This document shows positions 91 to 15,402 of a stretch of DNA of 64,000 nt, piece by piece. Location: NCBI RefSeq assembly GCF_007744675.1, contig NZ_CP036269.1, positions 2,583,546 through 2,647,545 on the forward strand. The letters are read 5' to 3'. The position numbers and the translations under genes were made by a program. The notes under the pieces were generated by a model. The model made no database searches, was not told the DNA's origin, and was given only the letters and a program-made list of their open reading frames with translations. This DNA is from Gimesia alba (GTDB lineage Bacteria > Planctomycetota > Planctomycetia > Planctomycetales > Planctomycetaceae). Numbering within the stretch: the first letter of the stretch is position 1; each line of letters starts with the position of its first letter.

Positions 91-915
91 TTAGCGGTTG
101 TTAGAACTGATGAGTGCTTCTTTTGCCGCTCGTGACATCGCTTTGATTTCCAACTCGCGTTTCAAAGCCGCGCTGCGGCTGGCTTGTGTTTCGTGATACT
201 CAATGCTGACGGGAAGACGACTGCGGGTATAGCGGGCACCCGTTCCCGTGTTGTGCTGCTGACATCTGCGGGTCAAGTCTGTCGTGATGCCCGTGTATAA
301 GGAACGATCAGCACACCGGAGGATATAGACAAACCAGACCGTGGGAGTCTCCGCCGAGCGGTCATTTTTTAGTTCGGCTTCTGCCAATCCCATAGCGTTC
401 AAATCGATTGGCAAATGAAGCATCCTTTGAAATGCTTCATTGGGCGTGCAGTAACTATCCGATTTCTTTTCGACAATGGCGGATGTTAGGTAATCATTCA
501 GTTCATAGCTGACTTCCAGCAGAGGAATTTGTTGTTCAATTAAAAGATCTTGTGCGTATTCAACCAGCAGATTCATCGAACTGGTGACAGAATGATTCAA
601 GGCTTTGGCAAACTGAATGGATTCTCTTTCGGATGCAATGAATTTTTCGAATGTCTGTTGATGAGTATCAGCGGCTGTGAAGTCCCGGATACAGTTCAAG
701 GCACATTCTGTGAACTGTCTTTGGTTAGTGATTCCTTTGCCGGTCATCAGGCAGGAATAAAGGGACTTTGTGTTGCTCAGCAAGATATATTGGCGGCGAT
801 CGGCAGTAAACAGGCGACAGGACCAGTCTGCAAAAGGATTCTGGTTTAAGGGTCGGAGAGTCAGTGTTCCCGTTTTAATTTTCTGGTTGAGTTTATGGGA
901 AAGGCGAAAGATCAT
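91..915 (-). CDS. DUF6933 - GIY-YIG nuclease-domain fusion protein
   Basis: A 274-residue protein with two recognisable parts. Residues 1 to about 165 match DUF6933: a MIFRLSHKL start, then NQNPFADWSCRLFTADR, QYILLSNTKSLYS, and AKALNHSVTSSMN-type motifs; its function is unknown. Residues ~193-274 are a GIY-YIG domain of the short UvrC/YhbQ type (VYILRC ... LYTGIT, RRCQQHN, ending in a Lys/Arg/Glu helix). I start at the ATG at 913-915 rather than 13 codons upstream because DUF6933 proteins begin with this M-I-x-R-L motif. No signal peptide is visible, so it is probably cytoplasmic. Stand-alone YhbQ-like proteins are about 80-100 residues, so the domain is complete. The fusion could be functional or could mark a lost stop between two neighbouring genes. 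Confidence 0.85.
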   Translation of the reverse strand: MIFRLSHKLNQKIKTGTLTLRPLNQNPFADWSCRLFTADRRQYILLSNTKSLYSCLMTGKGITNQRQFTECALNCIRDFTAADTHQQTFEKFIASERESIQFAKALNHSVTSSMNLLVEYAQDLLIEQQIPLLEVSYELNDYLTSAIVEKKSDSYCTPNEAFQRMLHLPIDLNAMGLAEAELKNDRSAETPTVWFVYILRCADRSLYTGITTDLTRRCQQHNTGTGARYTRSRLPVSIEYHETQASRSAALKRELEIKAMSRAAKEALISSNNR

Positions 916-1054
916 TTTGTCACTACCGATTTCATCTGATACTTTAGGCTGCAATTATGGTATCTTGCGATGAATTCCATTGAGAATCAATCCAAACATG
1001 AATTTCGATGTGAAAGCAGCTTTACTTTTTTACGTTTGATGCAAGGGCAACCCA

Positions 1055-1532: not shown

Positions 1533-2315
1533 TTACTGGTTCGTTGGAAATGAGCCACCTGTTTTCAGGATTTTTTCAGTTGCTCTTTCGAGTTTTCGAT
1601 TCCGTTCTTTGTACTCCAGTTCCGCTTCATCTTTGATGAGCAGTCCTGAAAGCGGGGTGTTCGAGATCAGTTGTTTTGACTTGCCGACAACAAATTTCCC
1701 GGCGTCGTAGGTATAGCCGCCCACGGTTCTGAAAACGCGGGACGTTGTTTTGGGAACACCGGTTTTACTGATCAGGCCAACGGTCGCTTTGGCTGTACCG
1801 GCTGTCGCATTTTTAAACGTGGTTCCGATCGGGAGATGATTCTTGTACGAAACTTTCGCTCCGCCATCATGGGGAAACGAAACGAGAATACGACTTTTTC
1901 CGTAACGATATTCAATCATGTCTTTTGAGTACAGCACTTCGGGAGCGCCGGGGAGCAATTGCACATCAGCATAGACTCGGCATTTCGTTTTCGGATGATT
2001 TGCCACCACGATCGAAGGGCCGCCTGGAATGTAAGGACCTTGAAACTTGCGGTCTCCCGTGTAGTAGTATCGGTGAACCAGGACAGTGGGAGGAATTTCA
2101 ATTTTTGAATTGTCTCCATCAGATTCCACAAGCACCGCCGGGATGCCGTCGGAACTGACGCCGGGCAGGATGACATCGATTTCCTGGGTCGCCGGCACAG
2201 GCGCTTTCTTCTCTGCATGAGCCGTCGCATTGATTTGAAACAAGGCGATCCAGATGATTCCGGCATGAATCAAATTCGTTTTTCGAATACAGGTGAATTT
2301 CGTTTTTGGGAACAT
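1533..2315 (-). CDS. Hypothetical exported protein, 260 aa
   Basis: An exported protein of unknown function. The N-terminus has a basic region followed by a hydrophobic stretch (AGIIWIALFQI) ending in ATAHA, a plausible signal peptide. The mature part is beta-rich with many Gly/Pro (IYIPGGPSIVV-like), and the last 40 residues are a charged helix. The longest frame begins at 2351, but the ATG at 2313-2315 has a GAGGA box seven bases upstream and is preferred. It lies 20-60 bases downstream of another exported protein on the same strand and is probably co-transcribed with it and the giant secretin-like gene. No known domain recognised. Confidence 0.75.
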   Translation of the reverse strand: MFPKTKFTCIRKTNLIHAGIIWIALFQINATAHAEKKAPVPATQEIDVILPGVSSDGIPAVLVESDGDNSKIEIPPTVLVHRYYYTGDRKFQGPYIPGGPSIVVANHPKTKCRVYADVQLLPGAPEVLYSKDMIEYRYGKSRILVSFPHDGGAKVSYKNHLPIGTTFKNATAGTAKATVGLISKTGVPKTTSRVFRTVGGYTYDAGKFVVGKSKQLISNTPLSGLLIKDEAELEYKERNRKLERATEKILKTGGSFPTNQ

Positions 2316-2371
2316 CCAATTTTCCTCAAACTTTTGTAGAACGTTTCGCATGTTGAATGATTTCTCGCAGT

Positions 2372-3052
2372 TTACTTCTCGTAGTAGAGTTCCATTTCAA
2401 CTAGATTAATTCGGTCGTAAAATTCCTGAAGATTTCTTTCAAACTGAGTTGGTTTGGCCCAGTTGCTGGTAAACTGTCGGGGAGCGGGTTCTCCACTTTT
2501 TACCCAGAACAAGGGGAATTTATGTGCCGCCAGTAACGATTTTCGTTGCAGATTTTTCTCATCTCGTGCATAACAGCGAATTGCCACGTGAACGCGACTG
2601 CCTTTGAGGTATTGCTGAAAATTGGGTTGATTTCCGAGCGCTTGTTGAATCGCCGTAAGTGCCTCACCACGGCTGGGATTAAAATGTGCATTGACTGCCA
2701 AGTTCCATTCTCCGGTCTCCTGAAAGCGAAAATCGGTTTCAGTCAGCACGGCAGGGATCACCAAGGGGAGCTGGTCTGAGCGATGGAAATATCTCGTTTT
2801 CGTTTTGGTACGGATCTGATTTGTTTCAGTATCAAACTCTTCGACTGCAACCACGACCTGTTCCGTCAATTCCACTCGGCTGCGGGCAGAGGTGGTACGA
2901 GTGTCATAATCATAATTGTAGGGAATTCCACACGTTCGGGTTGGAACGCGCCTGGGAAACAATTCACTGAATGCGGTGCCTGTCACAATCACTGCCATGC
3001 ACACAAAGCTGAGCCTCAACAGCGAGTTCTTATCAATTTTTTTAATGACCAT
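2372..3052 (-). CDS. Hypothetical exported or membrane-anchored protein, 226 aa
   Basis: The N-terminus has Lys residues, then a hydrophobic segment (LRLSFVCMAVIVTGTAFS), read as a signal peptide or anchor. The rest is soluble, with a long beta-like region and an amphipathic helical C-terminus (FERNLQEFYDRINLVEMEL). An AAGAG box precedes the ATG. It sits 67 bases downstream of the ~2220-residue secretin-like gene on the same strand. A small exported protein next to a secretin could be a pilotin or accessory factor, but no lipobox or known pilotin fold is evident, so this is inference from position only. Confidence 0.75.
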   Translation of the reverse strand: MVIKKIDKNSLLRLSFVCMAVIVTGTAFSELFPRRVPTRTCGIPYNYDYDTRTTSARSRVELTEQVVVAVEEFDTETNQIRTKTKTRYFHRSDQLPLVIPAVLTETDFRFQETGEWNLAVNAHFNPSRGEALTAIQQALGNQPNFQQYLKGSRVHVAIRCYARDEKNLQRKSLLAAHKFPLFWVKSGEPAPRQFTSNWAKPTQFERNLQEFYDRINLVEMELYYEK

Positions 3053-3119: not shown

Positions 3120-6100
3120 TTAATTCCTGAAAAGTGATTTAATTCGAGAGACAGACCGTTTGTAGATACTGGTTTGTTTGGGTTGTGAAGGTGCCGCTTT
3201 TTGTTGAACTGGATAATTATTTGCTGGTACCTTTGGTGTGGCCGCAGTCGGAGCTGAACGCGTCACTGATTGAGAAACCACTCTTCTGGGTGAAGAAATC
3301 CGGGCTTCCTGCTGAGGGCTCACGATTGTCGGCTCCCGTTTAGGGGATAAATCTGTGGCCGTCCAGGAAGCTGGCTGAATCTGGTTATCCCGGACCGGCA
3401 TTGCTGAAGTCTCAGCGGGCGCTGCCGAGGGAATTGGCGGCAGTGAATTCAAGCCGGGACCTGATGGTAATACCGGAACTGCCCGGTCAGTGTCTCTAAA
3501 ACCATCACGGTTGGAACGGGGGATAAATCGTTCGGAAGGATTTTGTTGTTCAGGATGAAAGTTTTCCTGAAGGTGACTTCGTTTAAGATTCAAGCCAGGC
3601 CCCATGTATCCGTTGGGATGGACATCGGGAATGGTTTCCTGTGTACGGTACAGGTCGGAGCGTCGTTCCGGTTCTTTGATCTGCAGGAATTGATCGACCT
3701 GCGAACCAGCGTAGTCGTAAACGCGATTTTTCAGGAAGCGATCGCGGCCTTTGGAGATGAACTCGCGGTTAGACAGTTCCAGCGGTCCGACATCAGCGAC
3801 CGCGGGAGCCCAGCGGAGTCCCATCAAGTCAAACAGGGTCGGATAGATGACCGCCTGACTCATGATCTGGCTTTGTTGCAGAGAACTTTCTGCACTTGGC
3901 GTCGGTCGGAACAGGACGCCGACTCCCGGTACGTCCGACAGAAGTGGAACTCCATTAGCAGTTCGCGATGCTTTCAAGGCGATCACAAAGCGGCTGATTT
4001 CCCGGAGTTCGTAGTTCCCCAGTTGGACGTCGGTATCGATGAAGTGTTCCTTAATTCTTCCCAGATGCTTTTCGTCAGCCCGAACAGGTTCCCGCACATT
4101 GGTACGATAGAGATAGTTCAGATCGAAGACGACCGCCTGACCGTCCGGCTGAATGACGGGGCGAACAGTGAAGCCGGTTCCTGTTTCGAATTTGAACACG
4201 GCTGGGTCCGGAATTAAATTTTCAAATGCAGAGCCGAAACGTTGCCCCTGAGATCCCGGTTGTCCTAAGACCTGTTTGTCTAACGAATCGGGTTTGATCG
4301 TATATCCCCCCTGCACGTTCTCGCCACCGTTCATGGAGGTAATTGCCAGGAAGGTCGGGTCATTCACCAAGGCGCCATATTCTTTAAACGCAGCCTCGGC
4401 AATATTCATGCCTTCGACGATGGCCAACTGCCGTTTGGGGAGATCGAATTCGATCGTCGCCTTGGGGGCGACTTTACCCAGCGAGCGGTTGTTGGTCAGG
4501 ATGCTGGATGTTTCCATCGAGCCGAACGAAACATTCCAGTAGCGGCTGGCATCACGGGCTTCCTTGAAGGCGGGATAATAAAACTGCGTATTGAAATCGT
4601 CTTCCAGTGCGGTGGCGATGCGCTTCAGATAGTTATCGATGTTGGCGGTATGTGCCCGGGTTCCTTCGACCAGTTCGATGAATTTATCCTCTGTCTGGTC
4701 GATTTGCATGTCGAGGAACTTTTTGTGATCCAGCGAAAGACGGGAGTTTTTCGCATTCTGTTCAGCAAATTTCAGTTTCAGTCCCGCTTCAAACAGTTCA
4801 TTGAATGATTTGTCGACCGTCTGGAAAAGTTCGATTGCTTCTTCGTAGATCGGATTTCCACTTTTCAGATATTGAAAGACCTGTGAATTGACCGTTCTCC
4901 AATTGGAATAGGCCGTTTGAATACCCGCGGAATCGGTTCCTGCTTTACCCAGTTTTTGGTTTACGTCTTGAAGTTCTTCAACAAAATGTCGGGCTGTATC
5001 TGCCGTATGCTCGCTGACATCTTTGATTAGGTAATAGGCACGGGCAATGCGATGAATGTCTCGCATCGAATCCATTTCTTTACTTTCGATTTCATTAAGG
5101 TAATGTTGTGCCTGATCCAATTTCTTTTGCATCGCTTCCGTCTGGTTATACCAATACAGTTTTTTTATCGCCTGTCTTGCGTCATTGACATATGCTTTTG
5201 TGATTTTATCGAGATCATCAAAATTCGGTTGACCAGTGATCATTAAAGCGACTTTGTTAGAGTTATTTGAACTAAAATTTTCAAATCTAAAATTGAATAC
5301 TTTATTTCCGTATTTGAATTTTCCCTTTTGCTTGAGAATTACCTTCTTGTACAGTTCATATCCTTCTTTGTTCTTCAGGGTATTAAGATTCTGTCGTACG
5401 GAACTCAAGCTCTCTTGAATCATTGAATTTGTAATCTGAATATTTTTTGATGATTTAATTAAAGGTGAAATGTTTGAACTCAGATTGTTTAGGGATTGGG
5501 AATTTTGAATTATTTCAGGGAAAAAATTCACTAAGACAACCCAAAGCCGTTGATCAAAAGGAGTATATATATTCTGACCTTCTTCCGGGTCGATAGGAAA
5601 CAGAGTTTTAATAAGCTGAGCTTTTTCTGCTTCTGATAACGAATTGATGTCGATTGTCTTGTTAACCGCAAATGCCCTTAAGACTTCGTTCACAACCTGT
5701 TCGAAGACCCTCTGAAATGAATCAAATTTCTGTGTGACTGCAGCGTATTCATTGCTGATTTGAGAAACGCGTGCCTGTAATCGGGCTGTGGTTTGGATGA
5801 CTTTGATCTGGCTGTCTTGCACCGATTTTTGTACTTCCGCGAGTGCCTGTTCTTCGAGATCTTCTTTTGCTTTGGCTGCTTTCAGTTCTTCCAGATAGTT
5901 GCCGACGCGTTGTTCGATCATGGCGCGTTCCATGACGTGCAGGTTGAGTTCTCGTTCGGTGGTCAGTTTGGCTTTGAAGATTTGTGCCAGCCGGACGAAT
6001 TCGCGTTGGATCGGCGTCATGGTATCGGTGCCGATGACTTCGTGATCGAAGAAACCCCGGAAGGACTGGAAGTTGGCATACGGTGCCAGCAGGTTCATTT

Positions 6101-9100
6101 TATGCGGATGTTTGTTCGCTTTCGTAATGCCGCCCTGGTAGAGGAACTGGCATTCTGCATTAGGCAGGTCTGTTTCAATCGAGGCATAAAATCGTGCCAG
6201 AATCTGCTGCCGAATGTCGTTTTTGGCTAGTGCCAGCACGAACAGGGCAGACGAGAGACTGGTGGTGTCCATCGAATGAATGGAGAGCAGTTTGTTGCCG
6301 GACTGCAGGAATTCGGAATCCATTTCCTGAAGTGCTTCAATGAAATCGCGTCCGAAGAACGCGTACAGATATTTTTCGTCGCGCTGTTCCTGTGTCATCG
6401 CGAATCCATCCTGACAGGTGGAGATGGCGACTTCGGAAGCGACGGCGACGATTGCTTTGCGTAACATCTGGGCAGACTGCACGGTCAGAAACCGGCTCTG
6501 ATCGATTGATTTCTGAATCCGGTCGGCGACGTTTTCCATACGTTTGGCATCTTCGCCGTTGACCTGGATGGTGTGCATCGCAATGCGAACCTGTCCGACG
6601 GGGGAATCGATCTGGTTGATCATCGTCCGGATGATATTCACCCCTTTGATCGGACCTCGCAGATGAATCAATCCTTCACCGATGACTTTAATCGTGACTT
6701 GTCGAACGGCGTCGTAAGATTCAGGATCACCGTTTCCGATGGTATAAAGATCTGTTTTTTCCGCCCGCAATTCGCTGCGGAACAATGCTGCGCTGAGTTG
6801 GTCTTCTTTCAGATCCAGTTTTTTGAGCTCGTCGTCTTCAGTATTCATCTCAGAAGACAGTGTCGAGATATCGCCCCGCAAGTCGTTCATGACCCGCTGA
6901 GCATCAGTGATGGCAGACTCGAGTTGGTTTTTGGTCGCGTCATCAATATCGGGGTTGGCACGTTCACGCACCAGGCCGCTGAGAATCTGTTGCTGGTTAC
7001 GGTATTCGTTTTCTTTTTGCCGCAGTTCTTTTGAGGCGCGAATCGCTTTTTCTTCCTGCAGACGGCGATTGAGGACGGCTGCTTCGTAGGATTCTCTGGC
7101 CTGATCGGCTTGCAGCTGGGCCTCCTGGTAGCCTTTATGATTCAGCGACTGAACTTCCGAATTGAGAATCTGTGCAACCCGATGGGCATCGCGATAGTAA
7201 TACAGCCGCGCGACCCGGGTCACGACTTTGTCTGAAGGATTGAATCCATCTGCAGGGAGATCCCGTTTTTCATATTCATGATATTCCACAAATTCCGTAG
7301 TCGGGACCGCGGGAACGGCGGTGCGACTGGCAGAGGCGGAGTCACTACCGGGTTTGTTTAAAACACGGACAAAATTGGTGCCGGGCTGTTTATCGTTCCC
7401 CTCCAGCTTGTTGCCGAAAATGTCTTTGAGTTCACTTCCTGTAATCACGAGTTGATAAATATCGGCTGGTATGTTTTCAAATGAGAGTATTACTGCATTG
7501 TCATACGACTGGTAGACTCCCTTAGTGATATTCAACGTTTCACCACTCAGAAAGTTGCCGGTACCTTTGCTGGGGATGAGATGGAATATTTTTTTGAGAT
7601 CAACAGAAGAAAATGGGTCTTTATCATCCCCTTCTAATGGATTCTTGGAAGAAAATTTGATTTTCAGCTTTACCACACCGGGGGCCGTTCCGAAGTTGGG
7701 AGGCTGGACGTCGACCACTTCCAAGCCGCCTTTCTGAATGTTGAGCGTGAATGTCTCGCTTTGACTGCTGGAGAGTTGGTCGCCTTGCGCAAATTTAATG
7801 TAGAGTTTGTATTGACCGTCGGGTAAGGGGGCGAGAAACTTCGCTGTTTTCATGTTTTCGAAGTCACCAAATCCTATGGGACTGTTCGATCCTTTGGAAA
7901 ACAGGACATACTGAATATTCTGTGAGCCACCAGAGGTACTCTGAAAGATGGGGGAATTCGTATTCAGGAAGAAAGGCTCTGTAGTAGATATGGCTACCGG
8001 TGATTTTTCATCAGAGCCTATCTTGAAAGCAGAAAGCTGTATCGTTCCTGAGTTTTCTGTCAGTGTACTGTTTTGAAGTTGAATTTTGACGGCGTTAGAA
8101 AACGAAAATTGATCGCCTTCCTGTCTAAGAATATACAGCGATTCATCAACAATTGCTCCGTCTTTATTGATCTTCAGTGTTGCCTGCCAGGCACCGTTCT
8201 GTCCTGGCTGGTAGTCTACTTTCAATTGTTGTGGAGTCGCTGGCAGAAGTTTGCCGCCGCTCTGGTTGAAGAGCATGAATTTTAACGCACGATCCGGGCT
8301 GGCATTGGTTCCGGATAAGACGAGATACCCGTTAAATACGTTGAGAGTGTTCTGAAAGTTTGTTTTGGGTTCTGCGTATTTCTGATTCTTGTAGGAAGTG
8401 AGTGCTGGTTTCAACGGGTTGATCGCAGCCGGTCTGGGGATCATGACGGTAATCGTTTTTGATTGACCCTTACCTGGTTCGCTGACCCAACTGTCTTTAA
8501 ACCGGAACTGGTAGATACCATGTTCAAGTCCAGAGAGAGTGTAAGTTTCTGCAGTCGATGAGACTTCGTCTTTGACCGCTTTTATATTTGACTCGAATTG
8601 ATTGGCAGTCGCTGGAATCGAATCGATCTTCTGAGATTCGAAGACGGCTGTTCGGTCTTTCGATTTCGTAATATTGAGTATCAGATTCGAACTGCGAAGC
8701 AGATAACAGGGAGTTCCATTTACGTTGGAATTTGGTTCGGAATAATCAATGGCGAGCATAGAAGGATCGCCGTCACCACTATCTGTAACAATGCCGATTT
8801 CAGGGTATTGAGGCTGGTTCTGAATGATGTTTTTGATTTTGAATTCGAACGTTTCGTAGGGAGCTGGTTTATCTTGTTCAAACAGTTTCAATACGTACTC
8901 ACCCGTCTGCTTGATTTCATGCGTAACCGGGTTACCAAAATCGGCGGCTGGTTTGTTTACTGAAAGCAAAGATTCTTCGGTAGTGCCTGTTTTGCGAAAT
9001 AGTTCCAGCTTGCAATCGATCTGTGTGCCACTAATGAGAACCGACAGATTTGCGGTGGGACCAGGCAGAAAATATTCGCCTCCATCCGTAATCGAAGTGA

Positions 9101-9788
9101 CCGTGCTGGAGGTTTTGGGAGATTTCACTTCAACGGATTTGATGATGGGATAATTTTTGATCTGGAAAGTGAATGTATCAGATGCAGTCGAACTAGTCGG
9201 AAGACTTACCACAATAGTCAAATCACCGTTGACAAAAGTCTGTGGGGGAATGGAATACGTTGCGGTTACTGGGTTCGCAGAGGACGTAGCGAACACTAAA
9301 GAACCCTGAATCCCCGTTGCTGCCGGCTGGGTGATATCAGTCGCCCCAATATCACTTCCTTTTGTGAATAGAAATGAAATACTCTTCAGTTCTTCCGGCG
9401 TTAGATAAAATATGGGAGCGGTTCCACCAGTACCATCTTTATTGATTGTTCCAACTGTTTTATTATCGACGAGTAAGGAAACGCTTGTCTCATTTGGGGA
9501 AACAGTAGGCTGACTATTAATTGCGGCCACTTGTTGCAACACTCTAGTTTGCGGAGCGACCGAGGTAGGGATCGGGCTGGCCTGGCTCGCTGGTGCAGCG
9601 GGGACCCTGATTAGATTTGGTGCTTGCTCAAGTTGTCTGGTATGAGAGGAGCCTACCTGCTGGATGGTGGGGGCGGTTGCCGGATGTTGTTGGGTCGTTT
9701 GTATCCAGTACATGCCGGCTCCAATGCCGATGGCGGAGCAGAGACAAACGGCCATACAATTCAACAATAAACCGAGAAACTTCTTCAT
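3120..9788 (-). CDS. Giant exported secretin-like protein (~2222 aa)
   Basis: A very large envelope protein. Residues ~1-30 form a signal peptide or anchor, followed by a Pro/Thr/Gln linker. Residues ~100-850 look like repeated Ig/fibronectin-type beta domains. About 875-1010 is coiled coil. About 1030-1090 resembles a secretin N-domain (VIGEGLIHLRG, then INQIDSPVGQVRI). A helical, coiled-coil insert of some 650 residues follows. About 1750-2005 resembles the secretin outer-membrane barrel domain, with GTGFTVRPVIQPDGQAVVF and, at 1946-1961, G-VPLLSDVPGVGVLFR, the hallmark of secretin C-domains. A Pro/Ser/Gln tail ends with basic residues. Ordinary secretins are about 400-750 residues. The longest frame opens with TTG at 9812, but ATG at 9788 (MKKFLGLLLN) gives a typical leader and is preferred. 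Residues ~1383-1580 are encoded by markedly AT-rich DNA. The secretin assignment is by motif reading. Confidence 0.8.
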   Translation of the reverse strand: MKKFLGLLLNCMAVCLCSAIGIGAGMYWIQTTQQHPATAPTIQQVGSSHTRQLEQAPNLIRVPAAPASQASPIPTSVAPQTRVLQQVAAINSQPTVSPNETSVSLLVDNKTVGTINKDGTGGTAPIFYLTPEELKSISFLFTKGSDIGATDITQPAATGIQGSLVFATSSANPVTATYSIPPQTFVNGDLTIVVSLPTSSTASDTFTFQIKNYPIIKSVEVKSPKTSSTVTSITDGGEYFLPGPTANLSVLISGTQIDCKLELFRKTGTTEESLLSVNKPAADFGNPVTHEIKQTGEYVLKLFEQDKPAPYETFEFKIKNIIQNQPQYPEIGIVTDSGDGDPSMLAIDYSEPNSNVNGTPCYLLRSSNLILNITKSKDRTAVFESQKIDSIPATANQFESNIKAVKDEVSSTAETYTLSGLEHGIYQFRFKDSWVSEPGKGQSKTITVMIPRPAAINPLKPALTSYKNQKYAEPKTNFQNTLNVFNGYLVLSGTNASPDRALKFMLFNQSGGKLLPATPQQLKVDYQPGQNGAWQATLKINKDGAIVDESLYILRQEGDQFSFSNAVKIQLQNSTLTENSGTIQLSAFKIGSDEKSPVAISTTEPFFLNTNSPIFQSTSGGSQNIQYVLFSKGSNSPIGFGDFENMKTAKFLAPLPDGQYKLYIKFAQGDQLSSSQSETFTLNIQKGGLEVVDVQPPNFGTAPGVVKLKIKFSSKNPLEGDDKDPFSSVDLKKIFHLIPSKGTGNFLSGETLNITKGVYQSYDNAVILSFENIPADIYQLVITGSELKDIFGNKLEGNDKQPGTNFVRVLNKPGSDSASASRTAVPAVPTTEFVEYHEYEKRDLPADGFNPSDKVVTRVARLYYYRDAHRVAQILNSEVQSLNHKGYQEAQLQADQARESYEAAVLNRRLQEEKAIRASKELRQKENEYRNQQQILSGLVRERANPDIDDATKNQLESAITDAQRVMNDLRGDISTLSSEMNTEDDELKKLDLKEDQLSAALFRSELRAEKTDLYTIGNGDPESYDAVRQVTIKVIGEGLIHLRGPIKGVNIIRTMINQIDSPVGQVRIAMHTIQVNGEDAKRMENVADRIQKSIDQSRFLTVQSAQMLRKAIVAVASEVAISTCQDGFAMTQEQRDEKYLYAFFGRDFIEALQEMDSEFLQSGNKLLSIHSMDTTSLSSALFVLALAKNDIRQQILARFYASIETDLPNAECQFLYQGGITKANKHPHKMNLLAPYANFQSFRGFFDHEVIGTDTMTPIQREFVRLAQIFKAKLTTERELNLHVMERAMIEQRVGNYLEELKAAKAKEDLEEQALAEVQKSVQDSQIKVIQTTARLQARVSQISNEYAAVTQKFDSFQRVFEQVVNEVLRAFAVNKTIDINSLSEAEKAQLIKTLFPIDPEEGQNIYTPFDQRLWVVLVNFFPEIIQNSQSLNNLSSNISPLIKSSKNIQITNSMIQESLSSVRQNLNTLKNKEGYELYKKVILKQKGKFKYGNKVFNFRFENFSSNNSNKVALMITGQPNFDDLDKITKAYVNDARQAIKKLYWYNQTEAMQKKLDQAQHYLNEIESKEMDSMRDIHRIARAYYLIKDVSEHTADTARHFVEELQDVNQKLGKAGTDSAGIQTAYSNWRTVNSQVFQYLKSGNPIYEEAIELFQTVDKSFNELFEAGLKLKFAEQNAKNSRLSLDHKKFLDMQIDQTEDKFIELVEGTRAHTANIDNYLKRIATALEDDFNTQFYYPAFKEARDASRYWNVSFGSMETSSILTNNRSLGKVAPKATIEFDLPKRQLAIVEGMNIAEAAFKEYGALVNDPTFLAITSMNGGENVQGGYTIKPDSLDKQVLGQPGSQGQRFGSAFENLIPDPAVFKFETGTGFTVRPVIQPDGQAVVFDLNYLYRTNVREPVRADEKHLGRIKEHFIDTDVQLGNYELREISRFVIALKASRTANGVPLLSDVPGVGVLFRPTPSAESSLQQSQIMSQAVIYPTLFDLMGLRWAPAVADVGPLELSNREFISKGRDRFLKNRVYDYAGSQVDQFLQIKEPERRSDLYRTQETIPDVHPNGYMGPGLNLKRSHLQENFHPEQQNPSERFIPRSNRDGFRDTDRAVPVLPSGPGLNSLPPIPSAAPAETSAMPVRDNQIQPASWTATDLSPKREPTIVSPQQEARISSPRRVVSQSVTRSAPTAATPKVPANNYPVQQKAAPSQPKQTSIYKRSVSRIKSLFRN

Positions 9789-10086: not shown

Positions 10087-12672
10087 TTAATTGTTATAAG
10101 GCGGGGTGCCAAACACGGCATTGCCGCGGCGGCGAATATCGCGGATCTGTCCACTCCGATTGACCAGGATGGGGGCATAGCCCTTTATGGACTTGCTTTC
10201 GGCATATTTTGCCGATTCGGACTGGTCCTGTTTATACTCTGAGGGGACGATCGTCTGTTTGGGAATCGTGAGGGGGTACCATTGTCCGTTATCTAATTGC
10301 ACCAGTAGTTGCAGCGTGATTTCGGCCCGAACTGTCGATCGGGTTTCGAAGTCGAGTTGATATCGTCCATCTTTGGTGATGGCTAACCGCATTTGATCCA
10401 GGACCGCCCCCTCTGTTTCAAAGGAGCTTCCATCGCGATGATAGCGCGGCAGAGGGAACGAAGCAGGGAAGGGGAAGGCAAATTCCTTGACCGCGATCTT
10501 TTTGCTTTCCGAGGTCTCCAGGTCAATCGAATCAGTATCAGTATCGGAATCGGAGTCAGAATCGGAGCTGGAAGTAGAAGTGTCAGGAGAACGAGATTCA
10601 GAAGTGGGGTCAGTATTCATCGCTGTAGTGGGACTTGCAGTGAAGGTATCCGGTGATTGGGTGGTCAGTGAGTCGTTTATTGAAACGGTATGATTTGCAT
10701 TTGGCGTGCTTCCTGAAAATAAACATTCAAAAACATCGGCATCCGGTCTGGCCAGGTGAACGCCTCGGTTTCGGATCGAAAACGAATGGACTTCGCCGTC
10801 CCATTTTCGCTTACCATCAGTCACAACAAGCTCGTCGCCGAGAAGCAGCCTGTATGATTTATCCCAGCCTGAGATGGGCGCCGCATATTTTTCGGTCAGC
10901 GGCAATTTTTTACCATCCAGCCAGAAGTGAAGTGTCTGGTCATAAAAGCTGATCACGACATTGTGGATTTCGTTTGCCTTGATTCCTTTTTTGAAATGAA
11001 CTCCTTGAGATCCTCCATTCGTTTTGCTCAGCCCGTTTTGGTCTAGAGCATTCCCAGCGTCTGTCCTGATCCGAAAAACCAGTTCGTCTTTGTACTGCCC
11101 CAGTGTGAAATTCCGCAGATTGGGGTCCTGGGAAAAAGAAACGATTCGCATCAATTCACTCGTTGCCTGCTGGGGATCCATTGTTTTAAAAGTGATATCA
11201 AGAGTGAATTCTCCCGACTTTTTACAGGCATCCAGAATCTTGTCGCTATATTCTTTTTCGATGAGTACGCGATGGGTTAAAAAGGGTAGTGTTTCGAGCT
11301 GTTTAATGTTTTTGAGGTATGATTCCCTGACGGCTTCGGGAGAGGGCCAGCTAAAGACCGCTTCATTACCCCAGCCTGTGCGTAGGTATTTCATGCATTT
11401 TTTCAGTGACTGGATCTCGCGATTCAGGTCGGCAAATTTTCCATTGATCTGATTTTGGAGGGCCTGATCTGCCTGCTGCTGCTTAGTCAGTTCTTTAGTA
11501 ATCTTTTCGACAAGTGTGCTTAATGAGTCAATTTGTTTTTCATATGCAGAGAGAGCCTGCGCCTGATGTGCCTGTGCGATCTCTCCTTTTATTGAGTCAT
11601 TCAACTTTTCAAGCTGTTCTGCTAACTCTTCCTTTAATTCGTCTTTGGTGACGTATTTGCGTTTCTTTTTCTTTTTTGAATACCGACTGTTGACGAATTC
11701 GAATTCGGAATCGTCTTCCAGGCGGGGATCATCTTGGCTGTTTCGTGATCTGTTTTTGAAGTTTTCCTCGATCAATTCTGTATTACGAGCCATGATGACG
11801 GTGGATCGTGCAGTTGTTTTGACCGCGGATGAATAATCACTCTCTTTGTCGTGCCGCTTCACTTTGACAGTGATCAACGAAGTGCCGGGGGGGAGAATTG
11901 GTCCAAACAAGAAATAGGAATCGAGTTTGGATTCTTTTCTGATGATCACAGGCTTCGTGGGTTCACCATTGACAAACAGGCTGATCTGATCTCCGGCTAT
12001 AACGTTCTTCAGCTTGAGCGACAGCTCTCCCTGTTCTGCCAGCCGCGTATCAATGGAACTGATGATTGGTGGCTCTGGCGAGGCCGCCGATACTTTGAGC
12101 CAGAAATCAATTATTTTTTTAGAATCATTTGTCGTAATATCAATGGAATACATTCCTGCGGGTAGTCTGGAGATTACTTCTGAAGACCGTCCACCTAGTT
12201 TGTTACGTTTCTTCTGTGGAGAAAAGGGAGTGAGCTTGAAAGTGAGGATTGCTTTTTCTTTTTTGATTTTAAACTCAGAATGACACTTTTGAAAAGTCAG
12301 TTCCACATTTGAATTCTTAACAGGATCTTTTAAGGGGACATAAGAAATTCTGAGCGGCTGATTTGTCGCTTCGATCTGGGAACTGGAGGAGTCGAGCGTC
12401 ACCCACTTTCCACCTGTGAGTAATTCGAACTTCAAGTGATCTTTGAGCGGGTTTGTTTCTGCCTCTTTTGAATCCTGCTCTGAATTAACCAAATCATTTC
12501 CGAAGTCAGCAGAGTTTCGAATCAGATGCTTGAAGCTGCGTTTTAGTTTTGACGTCTTGGTTTTGGCGATCTGGGTTTGAAAGTTCTGTGTATAGCCTGT
12601 GTTGCTGCTCATCCACAGAATTAGCAACATAAGGCACGACGTCAAAGTGATTTGAGATCGGATTGGTTTCAT
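10087..12672 (-). CDS. Exported coiled-coil / LamG-like protein, 861 aa
   Basis: An envelope protein of unknown role. Residues 1-29 are a clear signal peptide ending near NTGYTQ. About 100-290 is beta-rich and Ig-like. About 325-440 starts with a lysine cluster (KKKKKRK), then a long coiled coil. About 480-640 looks like a concanavalin-A/LamG sandwich (FTLDITFKTM, IHNVVISFYDQTLHFWLDGK, LLLGDELVV). About 680-720 is a Ser/Asp-rich spacer of alternating S-D residues. The C-terminal ~150 residues are basic and beta-rich. A GGGAGAAG box precedes the ATG. It shares the layout of Ig-like region plus coiled coil with the giant gene downstream on the same strand, suggesting a shared surface structure; a terminator lies between them. 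Confidence 0.8.
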   Translation of the reverse strand: MKPIRSQITLTSCLMLLILWMSSNTGYTQNFQTQIAKTKTSKLKRSFKHLIRNSADFGNDLVNSEQDSKEAETNPLKDHLKFELLTGGKWVTLDSSSSQIEATNQPLRISYVPLKDPVKNSNVELTFQKCHSEFKIKKEKAILTFKLTPFSPQKKRNKLGGRSSEVISRLPAGMYSIDITTNDSKKIIDFWLKVSAASPEPPIISSIDTRLAEQGELSLKLKNVIAGDQISLFVNGEPTKPVIIRKESKLDSYFLFGPILPPGTSLITVKVKRHDKESDYSSAVKTTARSTVIMARNTELIEENFKNRSRNSQDDPRLEDDSEFEFVNSRYSKKKKKRKYVTKDELKEELAEQLEKLNDSIKGEIAQAHQAQALSAYEKQIDSLSTLVEKITKELTKQQQADQALQNQINGKFADLNREIQSLKKCMKYLRTGWGNEAVFSWPSPEAVRESYLKNIKQLETLPFLTHRVLIEKEYSDKILDACKKSGEFTLDITFKTMDPQQATSELMRIVSFSQDPNLRNFTLGQYKDELVFRIRTDAGNALDQNGLSKTNGGSQGVHFKKGIKANEIHNVVISFYDQTLHFWLDGKKLPLTEKYAAPISGWDKSYRLLLGDELVVTDGKRKWDGEVHSFSIRNRGVHLARPDADVFECLFSGSTPNANHTVSINDSLTTQSPDTFTASPTTAMNTDPTSESRSPDTSTSSSDSDSDSDTDTDSIDLETSESKKIAVKEFAFPFPASFPLPRYHRDGSSFETEGAVLDQMRLAITKDGRYQLDFETRSTVRAEITLQLLVQLDNGQWYPLTIPKQTIVPSEYKQDQSESAKYAESKSIKGYAPILVNRSGQIRDIRRRGNAVFGTPPYNN

Positions 12673-12976: not shown

Positions 12977-13655
12977 TTATTCTTTTGTGACATTTGTCTT
13001 CTTTTTGTCTGTCGAGAGTTTCCGGATGGCATTCTCTGCAATCTCGCGCAGCCACATATCGTCTGACGCGCGCAGCTTGTCGAGATCCGGAATCGCTATT
13101 TGGGCCGATGCTCCCATTTCTCCCAAGGCGCGGGCGGCCTCACGTGGGACGCCGAAACGATTCGGGTTCTTTTCGATTAACGCCTTCCGTAGTGCGGGGA
13201 TGGCTGCCTTGGCAGAGGGACCGATGCCACCCAGTGCTTTTAAGACTGTCTCCCGAAATGTTCCCCATTCCGACTTATCTTCTATTTCGAGGGCCTGAAT
13301 GAGCACGGCTATGGCGGCATCGTTGCCAATTACACTTAAGGCTTCCACCGCCTCTGACTGAGCTTGAGTATTATTTGTTGGACCTTCGCGCACCTTCCGA
13401 ACGAGAAAGTCGAATCCTGCTTTGGCCTCCGGTTGGTTCGGGACGATTTTTACCAGTGCAGCAGCTGCCCAGACTTTGACGATCTCAACCTCGTGTATCC
13501 CCTCCCAGAGCCCAGAGGTCCTACTCTCTTGCTCCCTGTTTTCGTTGTCCATAAGCACGTCACTCGCCAGAAACCGCTTCAATGTTGGAACTGCGGCTGC
13601 TGCTTTGGGACCAATGTCAGCCAGGGCCCGGATGATGTCGAGACGAACGGGCATA
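12977..13655 (-). pseudogene. HEAT-repeat protein, 3' part of an IS-split gene
   Basis: The C-terminal half of a HEAT-repeat protein. At least five alpha-helical repeats of the type V-A-A-L-G-x-I-G-P-x-A-x-x-A-x-P-x-L can be read (for example ALADIGPKAAAAVPTL, ALGGIGPSAKAAIPAL, ALGEMGASAQIAIPDL). Joining minus-strand base 14594 directly to 13655 after removing 13656-14593 keeps the frame (DVGYT-MPVRLDI) and rebuilds a 495-residue protein with the 5' part at 14592-15402. On its own this half lacks a signal peptide. The few residues upstream of MPVRL in the present frame come from the IS end. The precise join argues for a recent insertion rather than decay. Confidence 0.85.
13654..13655. repeat. 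Target site duplication TA (left)
   Basis: TA at 13654-13655 directly abuts the left IS end and is repeated at 14592-14593. A TA duplication is known for the IS427 group of the IS5 family. Only two bases, but removal of the IS plus one TA restores the HEAT frame exactly. Confidence 0.75.
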
Positions 13656-13684
13656 GAGGGCATCTCAAAACCTTTTTAATAGTG
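13656..13684. repeat. IS left terminal inverted repeat
   Basis: 29 bases beginning GAGGGCATCTCAAAAC; 19 positions match the complement of the right end. The orfB stop codon lies inside this repeat. Confidence 0.8.
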
Positions 13685-14066
13685 TAAATAAACACCCAAG
13701 AATTACAAAGCTTTCGTAGAGGTAATCGTGATATTCCCAGCGCGTGACAATGCGACGATAGTTGTGGAGCCAGGCAATACTGCGTTCCACAATCCAACGT
13801 CGTTTGAAGCGTGGAAGCTTTCGACCATCTTGCGTCGGCGGTTTGACTCTCGATTTTCGATGCGGGCAGATCAGATCGATATTCTTTTCCATCAGCCGTT
13901 TGCGCAACGAGTCCGAATCGGCGGCTTTGTCATAAACAAGTCGCTCGGGTTGTCGATTTTGCAATGTGATTTTTTCAAGCAGCGGTTCGATCAGCTTGAC
14001 TTCGCTACGACGGGCCGATTCTGTGTCGATCGCCACAGGTGTCCCGTGACGATCGACAAAAATCAT
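13665..14066 (-). CDS. IS5-family transposase, orfB (DDE C-terminal part)
   Basis: Carries the second half of the DDE catalytic domain: VYDKAADSDSLR supplies the second Asp region, and RWIVERSIAWLHNYRR (the R-x3-E element with its Trp/Arg context) supplies the Glu. It overlaps orfA by ATGA. The natural frame continues upstream of the ATG as TRRGKGTKV, a sequence conserved in fused IS5 transposases. This means the protein is probably made as an orfA-orfB fusion by -1 frameshifting rather than from its own start. The predicted fusion is 281 residues, the usual size for this group. Confidence 0.88.
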   Translation of the reverse strand: MIFVDRHGTPVAIDTESARRSEVKLIEPLLEKITLQNRQPERLVYDKAADSDSLRKRLMEKNIDLICPHRKSRVKPPTQDGRKLPRFKRRWIVERSIAWLHNYRRIVTRWEYHDYLYESFVILGCLFTLLKRF

Positions 14067-14509
14067 GACCTTTGTGCCTTTGCCACGACGAGTCGGGCCA
14101 ACTCTTCTACCCCTTTTTTTGCCGAGGCAAAAGTGCCATCAGCAAAGGTTTCCGAGAAATCAATCTGGCCAGCATCATCCATTCGTTCCAAGATGATTTG
14201 CCAGGCAGATAAGAGCCGCCCTTCGATCGTCCATTGCTGGAAACGTCGATGGCACGTCGCTTTTGAGGGATACTCTCTTGGTAAATCTTTCCATCGTGCT
14301 CCTGTCACCAAAATCCAGAGAATGCCTTCCAGGCAATCTCGTGGATGGGCTTTTGGACGTCCTCCCTTTTTGGAAGGGGGAGTCCAGGGAAACAGTTTTG
14401 CGACTAAAGACCATTGTTTATCGGTCAAAACGACCGGGCGTTCCGTCCTGGACGCTGTTTTTGTGGAAACCCGTTTTCGTTTGGGCCACCAGACCAGCGT
14501 CATATACAT
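14063..14509 (-). CDS. IS5-family transposase, orfA (DNA-binding and first Asp)
   Basis: N-terminal part of the transposase: LTDKQWSLVAKLFP, GGRPKAHPRDCLEGILWIL and TGARWKDLPREYPSKAT are the DUF4096-type N-terminal domain of IS5 transposases. DFSETFADGTFASAKK carries the first catalytic Asp. After the AKK the zero frame reads 18 unrelated residues before a stop, whereas the -1 frame reads the conserved VGPTRRGKGTKV. This orfA product alone would lack two of the three catalytic residues. Confidence 0.88.
   Translation of the reverse strand: MYMTLVWWPKRKRVSTKTASRTERPVVLTDKQWSLVAKLFPWTPPSKKGGRPKAHPRDCLEGILWILVTGARWKDLPREYPSKATCHRRFQQWTIEGRLLSAWQIILERMDDAGQIDFSETFADGTFASAKKGVEELARLVVAKAQRS
14114..14120 (-). 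promoter_or_regulatory. Candidate -1 ribosomal frameshift site (A7 run)
   Basis: On the coding strand the transposase reads GCA AAA AAA GGG G. Seven A residues followed by four G fit the A-AAA-AAG class of -1 slippery heptamers. Slipping here joins orfA (132 codons) to the orfB frame and yields the conserved AKK-RGRRVGPTRRGKGTK sequence. Frameshifting at such runs is established for several IS families. Confidence 0.75.
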
Positions 14510-14562
14510 AAGAAATTCTCCTTTCAGGAGAACACTTCATGCAAAAGACGCGCCAAACCGTT

Positions 14563-14591
14563 CACTTTTTTTGACGTTATGAGACAACCTC
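14563..14591. repeat. IS right terminal inverted repeat
   Basis: 29 bases whose complement begins GAGGTTGTCTCATAAC; partner of 13656-13684. Followed by the second TA duplication at 14592-14593. Confidence 0.8.
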
Positions 14592-15402
14592 TAGTGTAGC
14601 CAACATCGTAATATGCATCCCACCGTCGTTTTTTTGTGAGTAAATGATCATTCAGATCGCGCACAGCAGATTGTGCCCTACCATGGAACTTGCCCAGGGT
14701 CTGTGCTGATGCAGCCACAATGTCACCATTGGCGTTCTTTAATCCTTCAACAAGCAACGGGATGGCCAGCGTCCCTTTCGGGTCGGCATCATGAAGTGTT
14801 GTCAGGGCGGCTTCGCGAACGAAGTCTTCTTCTTTGGAACGACGAAACACGCTTTCAAGGAGAGGCACTGCTTTTTGAGGGGTGACGCCTACTTTCCCAA
14901 CGGCACGAACGGCATCCCAGCGAACCCATTCGTCATCGTCAGTCAGGAGGTTTTTTAGTGCGTTGAAGGAATGATTCGCGGGGGGACCAATTTCTCCGAG
15001 CGTTTTCGCGGCATATTGGCGGACTGTCTTGTCGCGGTGACTCAGTGCTTTAATCAGTGAGGGAACCGCTGGTGGTCCAATCTCTACAAGTACCTCAGAC
15101 GCAACATCTTGAACGCGCGGGCCGAAGAAGTTGAATTCTACATCGACTGGTTTACCTGGATCATTGAGTGCAGCAATCAGCGGCTTGATGGCGATTCTCG
15201 CCTTCGGACCGAGTGCTTTCAGTGAACGTGCCGCAGCGTATCGCACCTTGGGGTTGTCCGATTGCAGCAAATTCACCAACTCTGTAACTTCGTCCGCTCT
15301 GAGTTGAGTGGCAAGCAGGAGACAACAGAGGAAGACGAGCAAGCATTGTATCTGAAGCAAGTCTGTTACCATTCGCAAGGTTTCCAGAAAAAAGTCGCTC
15401 AC
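14592..15402 (-). pseudogene. HEAT-repeat protein, 5' part of an IS-split gene
   Basis: The N-terminal half of the split gene. Residues ~13-36 are a signal peptide (LLVFLCCLLLATQLRADE), followed by about six HEAT repeats (AARSLKALGPKARIAIKPL, AAKTLGEIGPP, AVRAVGKVGVTPQKAVPLL, AAALTTLHDADP-like). The present frame runs on into the IS to 14524, adding about 21 foreign residues. An exported truncated product of ~290 residues is still possible. The original protein was probably a periplasmic helical scaffold. Start choice: ATG at 15402; the second Met 11 codons later is an equally plausible leader start. Confidence 0.85.

What the first reader, a model, noticed from the sequence alone, without database searches (positions are those of the whole stretch)
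3120..9788. A ~2220-residue protein with a secretin-type barrel motif and huge helical inserts
The sequence shows the secretin hallmark VPLLSDVPGVGVLFR at residues 1946-1961, preceded by GTGFTVRPVIQPDGQAVVF-type barrel sequence, and an upstream N-domain-like segment (VIGEGLIHLRG, INQIDSPVGQVRI) near 1040. Between them lie some 650 residues of mainly coiled coil, and before them some 750 residues of Ig-like domains. Ordinary secretins are three to five times smaller and have contiguous N and C domains. This could be an outer-membrane pore of a planctomycete-specific export or surface system, perhaps linked to the large surface pits of this phylum.
Basis: partly seen in the sequence, partly recalled or inferred. 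Interest (0 to 1): 0.82.

Follow-up and report, generated by a model that had tools for sequence, protein, structure and literature searches.

The report
Giant planctomycete secretin with helical crown
The gene encodes a real but highly unusual relative of the ring-shaped outer-membrane pores called secretins, with a 670-residue helical domain inserted where other secretins have a small cap; it travels with three exported partner proteins and occurs in only about one in nine genomes of one planctomycete class, so it is not the general "surface pit" protein of the phylum.

Summary
The 2222-aa ORF is real, and its C-terminus is a secretin: PF00263 at 1866-1964 (18 of 27 relatives match too). An AlphaFold model of residues 850-2045 superposes on GspD, T3SS secretins, pIV and PilQ (best Z 14.0, 191 residues). 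One N3-like ring domain is split by a coiled-coil hairpin (884-1012). A ~670-residue helical region follows the first secretin strand, at the position of the apical/cap-gate loop of GspD. A published survey of 6167 T2SS secretins gives 34-101 residues there; this family has 307-678, even in ~850-aa members without the N-terminal extension. "Ig-like" has only weak support. B belongs to a conserved module A-B-C-D (window 12672-1533, minus strand). Partners are exported, of unknown family; all 26 sampled genomes with a clear D also have B. No secretion ATPase, pseudopilin or inner-membrane platform recurs nearby. B occurs in 33 of 297 Planctomycetia genomes (few in its own genus), so the link to phylum-wide surface pits is not supported. 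Most likely: a stand-alone, patchily kept outer-membrane secretin ring with a helical apical crown. New variant of a known kind; oligomer, membrane side and cargo are inferred.

The parts
3120..9788 (-). B: giant secretin-like protein, 2222 aa
   Evidence: ORF; family of 33/297 Planctomycetia genomes
9699..9788 (-). residues 1-30: hydrophobic N-terminus (signal anchor or signal peptide; lipobox-like in some relatives)
   Evidence: hydropathy survey of relatives
7254..9698 (-). residues 31-845: variable N-terminal region, possibly Ig-like; absent from short relatives
   Evidence: conservation, length table, weak Pfam Ig hits in relatives only
7140..7241 (-). residues 850-883: first half (beta-alpha) of the N3-like ring domain, motif LYYYRDAHRVAQILN
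   Evidence: AlphaFold model and structural match; 97% identical in the nearest relative
6753..7139 (-). residues 884-1012: coiled-coil hairpin inserted in the N domain
   Evidence: two antiparallel helices, model 35-94 and 101-162
6603..6752 (-). residues 1013-1062: second half (beta-beta-alpha) of the N3-like domain
   Evidence: AlphaFold model; profile alignment to the junction of N domain and secretin domain of ordinary secretins, weak
6555..6593 (-). residues 1066-1078: first secretin-domain strand, QVRIAMHTIQVNG
4533..6548 (-). residues 1081-1752: helical apical insert (~670 aa)
   Evidence: AlphaFold model; 307-678 aa in all relatives measured
3843..4532 (-). residues 1753-1982: remaining secretin barrel strands
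   Evidence: AlphaFold model, superposes on GspD, InvG, pIV, PilQ
3897..4193 (-). PF00263 match, residues 1866-1964, with hallmark VPLLSDVPGVGVLFR
3123..3788 (-). residues 2001-2222: moderately conserved post-barrel segment and Pro-rich tail
10087..12672 (-). A: exported partner, 861 aa; conserved part is the C-terminal ~150 aa (10099-10554)
   Evidence: homologous C-terminal domain upstream of B in many loci
2372..3052 (-). C: exported partner, 226 aa
   Evidence: conserved directly after or before B
1533..2351 (-). D: exported partner, 272 aa, beta domain at residues 58-171; lipoprotein-like in some Gemmataceae
   Evidence: 26 of 26 genomes with a strong D hit also have B; alignment; AlphaFold model

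Best explanation
B is a divergent secretin that forms a multimeric ring in the outer membrane. Its C-terminal strands build the double-walled barrel. A single N3-like ring domain stacks below it in the periplasm, with a coiled-coil hairpin of about 9 nm projecting from each copy. Where ordinary secretins have a short apical loop or cap gate, each subunit carries a 300-680 residue helical domain, so the ring would bear a crown of helices at the membrane-distal tip that could gate the pore or grip a surface structure or substrate. In the giant form a variable, probably Ig-like N-terminal extension, often with an anchor-like N-terminus, reaches towards the inner membrane across the wide planctomycete periplasm. 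Exported proteins A, C and D are dedicated subunits, D perhaps an outer-membrane lipoprotein with a pilotin- or scaffold-like role. Shown: homology, predicted fold, position of the inserts, cassette conservation, patchy distribution. Inferred: oligomerisation, outer-membrane location, outside position of the crown, roles of A, C and D, and what passes through.
For: PF00263 in the window protein and 18 of 27 relatives. Profile-profile match of the C-terminal region to ordinary secretins of the same genome, E 4e-6. AlphaFold model (pLDDT 71, better in the conserved parts) with beta-alpha-[hairpin]-beta-beta-alpha, first strand, helical insert, barrel strands. Foldseek: the top 24 hits are all secretins. 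VIA-align: GspD Z 14.0, rmsd 5.5, 191 residues, model 1-1134 on chain 236-587; also T3SS secretins, pIV, PilQ. Secretin rows mix with helical rows from about Z 12, so the top of the list, not Z alone, is the evidence. In GspD the membrane tip includes alpha7-beta11 and the cap gate lies between alpha7 and alpha8 (PMC10329019); apical regions are 34-101 aa in 6167 T2SS secretins (PMC10550240) against 307-678 here. Module A-B-C-D and D-B co-occurrence, 26 of 26. Strong sequence constraint: N domain and barrel 94-97% identical between two species where the Ig-like part is 49% and the coil 40%.
Against: No oligomer could be modelled. The central gate is not recognisable; the model is poor at residues 1810-1862. 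The right border of the insert rests on the predicted fold alone; profile alignment of 1690-1800 to ordinary secretins finds nothing. The left border is weakly supported by sequence (E about 0.008, probability 5%). No N0 domain was detected, although all studied secretins are said to have one (PMC10550240). Partner D has no recognisable fold and no partner has a known function. No motor or platform genes recur nearby.
Confidence: 0.6

Rival explanations
1. B keeps the secretin fold but is no longer a channel: a ring or scaffold protein whose coiled coils and Ig-like extension tie the outer membrane to the inner membrane or to a surface layer.
For: No recognisable central gate, no N0 domain, no transport genes recurring beside it; large coiled-coil content; patchy retention.
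Against: The barrel strands and the VPLL..VP..G.LFR segment are among the most conserved parts of the protein, 94% identical between two species, as expected if the barrel matters.
Confidence: 0.22
2. B is the outer-membrane pore of the crateriform surface structures of planctomycetes.
For: Class-restricted, large, envelope-type protein; crateriform structures are said to join outer and cytoplasmic membrane (PMC5394234).
Against: Present in only 31 of 261 good genomes of the class and 26 of 155 genera; missing from most complete genomes of its own genus, whereas the structures are described as characteristic of the group.
Confidence: 0.04
3. B is an unusual outer-membrane secretin of a T2SS or type IV pilus that uses the machine encoded elsewhere in the genome.
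For: The genome has an ordinary GspD-like secretin with five Secretin_N copies (L046), so a platform probably exists.
Against: Its own dedicated module A-C-D, no N0 docking domain found, and no or far sub-threshold NCBIfam T2SS, T3SS and T4P secretin matches.
Confidence: 0.12

Closest known systems
T2SS secretin GspD (Vibrio-type, with cap gate)
   Same: N3-like domain followed by secretin barrel; best structural match Z 14.0 over 191 residues; extra sequence at the apical loop
   Different: Apical insert 307-678 aa and helical instead of about 20 extra residues (PMC10329019) or 34-101 aa in total (PMC10550240); N domain split by a hairpin; no N0-N2 domains detected; no Gsp genes beside it
Filamentous phage secretin pIV
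   Same: Few N domains before a secretin barrel; structural match Z 13.1 over 194 residues
   Different: pIV is about five times smaller (general knowledge), with no helical insert and no Ig-like extension
T3SS secretins InvG and MxiD (SctC)
   Same: Structural match Z 12-13.5
   Different: Score 20.5 bits against a cut-off of 238 for the SctC model in the best relative, none for the window protein
Giant planctomycete GspD-like secretin with 11 Secretin_N copies (L037, 2137 aa)
   Same: Similar size, same class, shares the barrel
   Different: Grew by multiplying N domains, keeps a complete PF00263, sits in a cluster that looks T2SS-like by eye; not the same family

Membership tests
Secretin superfamily (PF00263 fold) | C-terminal secretin domain homologous to PF00263 | tested here: met
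   E 3e-5 in the window protein, 18 of 27 relatives, one relative over the curated cut-off; profile match E 4e-6
Secretin superfamily (PF00263 fold) | Ring-building N domain (beta-alpha-beta-beta-alpha) directly before the barrel | tested here: met
   Predicted fold, split by a coiled-coil hairpin; structural matches start in the N3 domain of GspD. Not seen by PF03958 at sequence level
Secretin superfamily (PF00263 fold) | VPxLxxIPxxGxLF hallmark near the barrel C-terminus | tested here: met
   VPLLSDVPGVGVLFR, 1947-1961, conserved across the family
Secretin superfamily (PF00263 fold) | 12-16-fold oligomeric ring in the outer membrane | not testable with these tools
   No multimer prediction or experiment available
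Secretin superfamily (PF00263 fold) | Central gate strands | tested here: inconclusive
   Region 1786-1862 is modelled as a helix plus a low-confidence stretch
Secretin superfamily (PF00263 fold) | N0 domain at the N-terminus | tested here: inconclusive
   No N0 or STN model among the Pfam hits of 27 members; remote versions may be missed
T2SS GspD | TIGR02517 equivalog score | tested here: not met
   No hit for the window protein; 17.8 bits against a cut-off of 351 in a short relative
T2SS GspD | Encoded with gsp motor, platform and pseudopilin genes | tested here: not met
   Only A, C and D recur specifically beside B in 68 loci
T4P PilQ | TIGR02515 score over cut-off | tested here: not met
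   20.6 bits against 284 in a short relative, none in the window protein
T3SS SctC | TIGR02516 score over cut-off | tested here: not met
   20.5 bits against 238 in a short relative, none in the window protein
Crateriform surface structure component | Present throughout Planctomycetia | tested here: not met
   31 of 261 good genomes, 26 of 155 genera

The most novel reading that the evidence does not exclude
A new class of secretin machine: a stand-alone, module-encoded, possibly envelope-spanning secretin ring that carries a megadalton helical crown on the cell surface in place of the cap gate, and works with three dedicated exported proteins instead of a T2SS, T3SS or pilus inner-membrane machine.
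Probability: 0.3. Interest if true: 0.85.

Novelty: new variant of a known kind. Interest (0 to 1): 0.62.

Why it matters
Secretins are among the largest membrane pores known, and their apical region was described as 34-101 residues long in a survey of 6167 T2SS secretins (PMC10550240). A family with a 300-680-residue helical domain at that position shows that the tip of the pore can carry a whole new module, and offers a natural test of what gates or decorates a secretin. It also marks an undescribed four-gene envelope system in Planctomycetia, a group whose envelope and macromolecule uptake are debated, and it separates that system from the crateriform structures. No description was found in the open-access paper library.

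Tried and rejected
Crateriform-pit component: rejected on distribution. T2SS, T3SS or T4P secretin by membership: rejected on model scores and gene context. Defence system: PADLOC gives nothing for B, C or D, and only an unknown-function match in the coiled-coil part of A. Phage origin: no PHROG for B. Promoter scan no better than shuffles. Known fold for partner D: none found (best VIA-align Z 4.4); absence from these lists is no proof of a new fold. PDB sequence hits of the core profile are mostly coiled-coil or designed proteins and were discarded as compositional. The first related-loci scan with the single protein found nothing; the alignment scan found 56 loci. Joining the two N-domain halves in a profile did not improve the weak match to ordinary secretins. 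The 2137-aa G053 protein looked like a relative at E 1e-4 but is a GspD-like secretin with many N domains. The strand amphipathicity test is uninformative. A quick tree of 52 members mostly follows host families and gene order, with long branches and many open forks, so it decides neither transfer nor loss.
Full report
WHAT IS THERE. The ORF at 3120-9788 (minus strand) encodes 2222 residues from the ATG. Pfam finds PF00263 (Secretin) at 1866-1964, E 3e-5, slightly under the curated cut-off and over it in the genome search. Of 27 family members, 18 match PF00263 on their own, and the 820-aa relative L034 passes the cut-off. Profile-profile comparison of the C-terminal region with ordinary secretins of the same genome gives E 4e-6. 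The hallmark segment is therefore real homology, not a chance motif.

ARCHITECTURE. An AlphaFold2 model of residues 850-2045, built with 39 relatives, has mean pLDDT 71 and pTM 0.54. It shows strand, helix, a coiled-coil hairpin of two helices of about 60 residues (884-1012), two strands and a helix: an N3-like ring domain split by the hairpin. The first secretin strand (1066-1078) follows, then about 670 mostly helical residues, then the remaining barrel strands (1753-1982). Foldseek's first 24 PDB matches are all secretins. VIA-align gives GspD Z 14.0, rmsd 5.5, 191 residues, with T3SS secretins, pIV, PilQ and RcpA close behind. Because long helices alone reach Z about 12 in the same list, the evidence is that secretins occupy the top ranks and align from the N domain through the last strand. 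The insert lies after the first secretin strand and before the next, which in GspD is the alpha7-alpha8 region where Vibrio-type secretins carry the cap gate at the membrane tip (PMC10329019). The left border has weak sequence support (profile E about 0.008 to the junction of N domain and secretin domain of two ordinary secretins); the right border rests on the fold prediction only.

THE FAMILY. Relatives are found in 33 of 297 sampled Planctomycetia genomes, 26 of 155 genera; one of the 33 (G053) proved to be a different GspD-like giant. In the window's own genus only 4 of 17 genomes, the window's included, have it, and complete genomes are among those without it. An alignment-guided scan of named genomes gave 56 loci, among them Blastopirellula marina DSM 3645, Stieleria sedimenti, Gemmata sp. 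IIL30, Fuerstiella and Isosphaeraceae. A sample of the wider phylum gave no confident hit outside the class. Sizes run from 820 to about 2360 aa. The short forms lack the N-terminal extension but keep the hairpin (108-141 aa between the same anchor points) and the apical insert (307-320 aa); forms of intermediate length have inserts of 334-336 aa, and giants have hairpins of 147-383 aa and inserts of 539-678 aa. The inserts thus define the family; the Ig-like extension does not. A published survey of 6167 T2SS secretins gives an apical region of 34-101 residues (PMC10550240); its borders are defined by motifs not recognisable here, so the comparison is approximate.

CONSTRAINT. Between the window and its nearest relative the N domain and barrel are 94-97% identical, the conserved insert parts 84-88%, the Ig-like part 49% and the variable coil 40%. 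The secretin parts and the insert ends are under strong selection.

THE MODULE. Genes A (10087-12672), B, C (2372-3052) and D (1533-2351) lie on one strand, with 67 bases between B and C and 20 between C and D. A-B-C-D is the order in one clade; C-D-B or D-B in others; the shortest forms stand alone. All-against-all comparison of neighbours in 68 loci finds only A, C and D as specific conserved neighbours; other recurrent families look, by eye, like common planctomycete paralogues. All 26 genomes with a strong D hit (E below 1e-25) also have B. D has an N-terminal hydrophobic helix, a confident beta domain (58-171) and C-terminal helices, with no clear fold match; in some Gemmataceae it shows a lipobox-like motif. 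A shares a ~150-aa C-terminal domain across loci. C is poorly conserved. The giant's N-terminus looks like a membrane anchor in many relatives and a lipobox in a few; short forms look like cleaved signal peptides (judged by eye, no signal predictor available).

HOW IT MOST LIKELY WORKS. By homology and predicted fold, B should form an outer-membrane ring. The insert position puts the helical domain at the membrane-distal tip, so 12-15 copies would make a helical crown. A, C and D would be dedicated subunits. What passes through, if anything, is unknown; a gate-less scaffold ring is the main rival. The crateriform-pit idea fails on distribution: Boedeker et al. describe the structures as unique to Planctomycetes and as links between outer and cytoplasmic membrane (PMC5394234), but nine in ten genomes of the class lack this gene. 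T2SS, T3SS and T4P membership fails on model scores and context.

LIMITS. No multimer could be predicted. The model is weak at 1810-1862 and in the variable coil. Distribution figures come from one genome per species, drawn from a larger set. The paper library holds open-access papers only, so 'not described' means not found there.

Noticed in passing
91-954 (-): Fusion of DUF6933 (E 1.7e-26) and a GIY-YIG domain (E 2e-14) in one 287-aa ORF.
   Followed up: no
12977-15402 (-): Two homologous HEAT-repeat ORFs with a DDE transposase fragment (13665-14066) between them, as if an insertion sequence had landed in a HEAT-repeat gene or pair.
   Followed up: no
L037 6823-13236: 2137-aa secretin with 11 Secretin_N copies and a complete PF00263, in a cluster that looks T2SS-like by eye: a different route to a giant secretin in the same class.
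   Followed up: partly
L042 6528-9923 and L044 5836-8094 (own genome): BlaR1-type M56 peptidases with a PF00263-like domain C-terminal to the peptidase (E 2e-5 and 1.6e-8), an odd combination.
   Followed up: partly
L041 9853-14970 (own genome): 1705-aa protein with a TPR-like start and a secretin C-terminus, PF00263 hit in two pieces in the genome search.
   Followed up: no
own genome C1:6596668-6598746: 1256-aa open frame with six Secretin_N matches and no listed PF00263 match, about 15 kb from the GspD-like gene.
   Followed up: no
search: Short open frames in many Planctomycetia carry a weak version of the D beta domain (positions about 103-162), so D may belong to a wider small-protein family.
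   Followed up: no
L099, L138: Contigs labelled Nealsonbacteria and Hydrogenedentota carry clear planctomycete-type B genes; probably mis-binned metagenome contigs.
   Followed up: no
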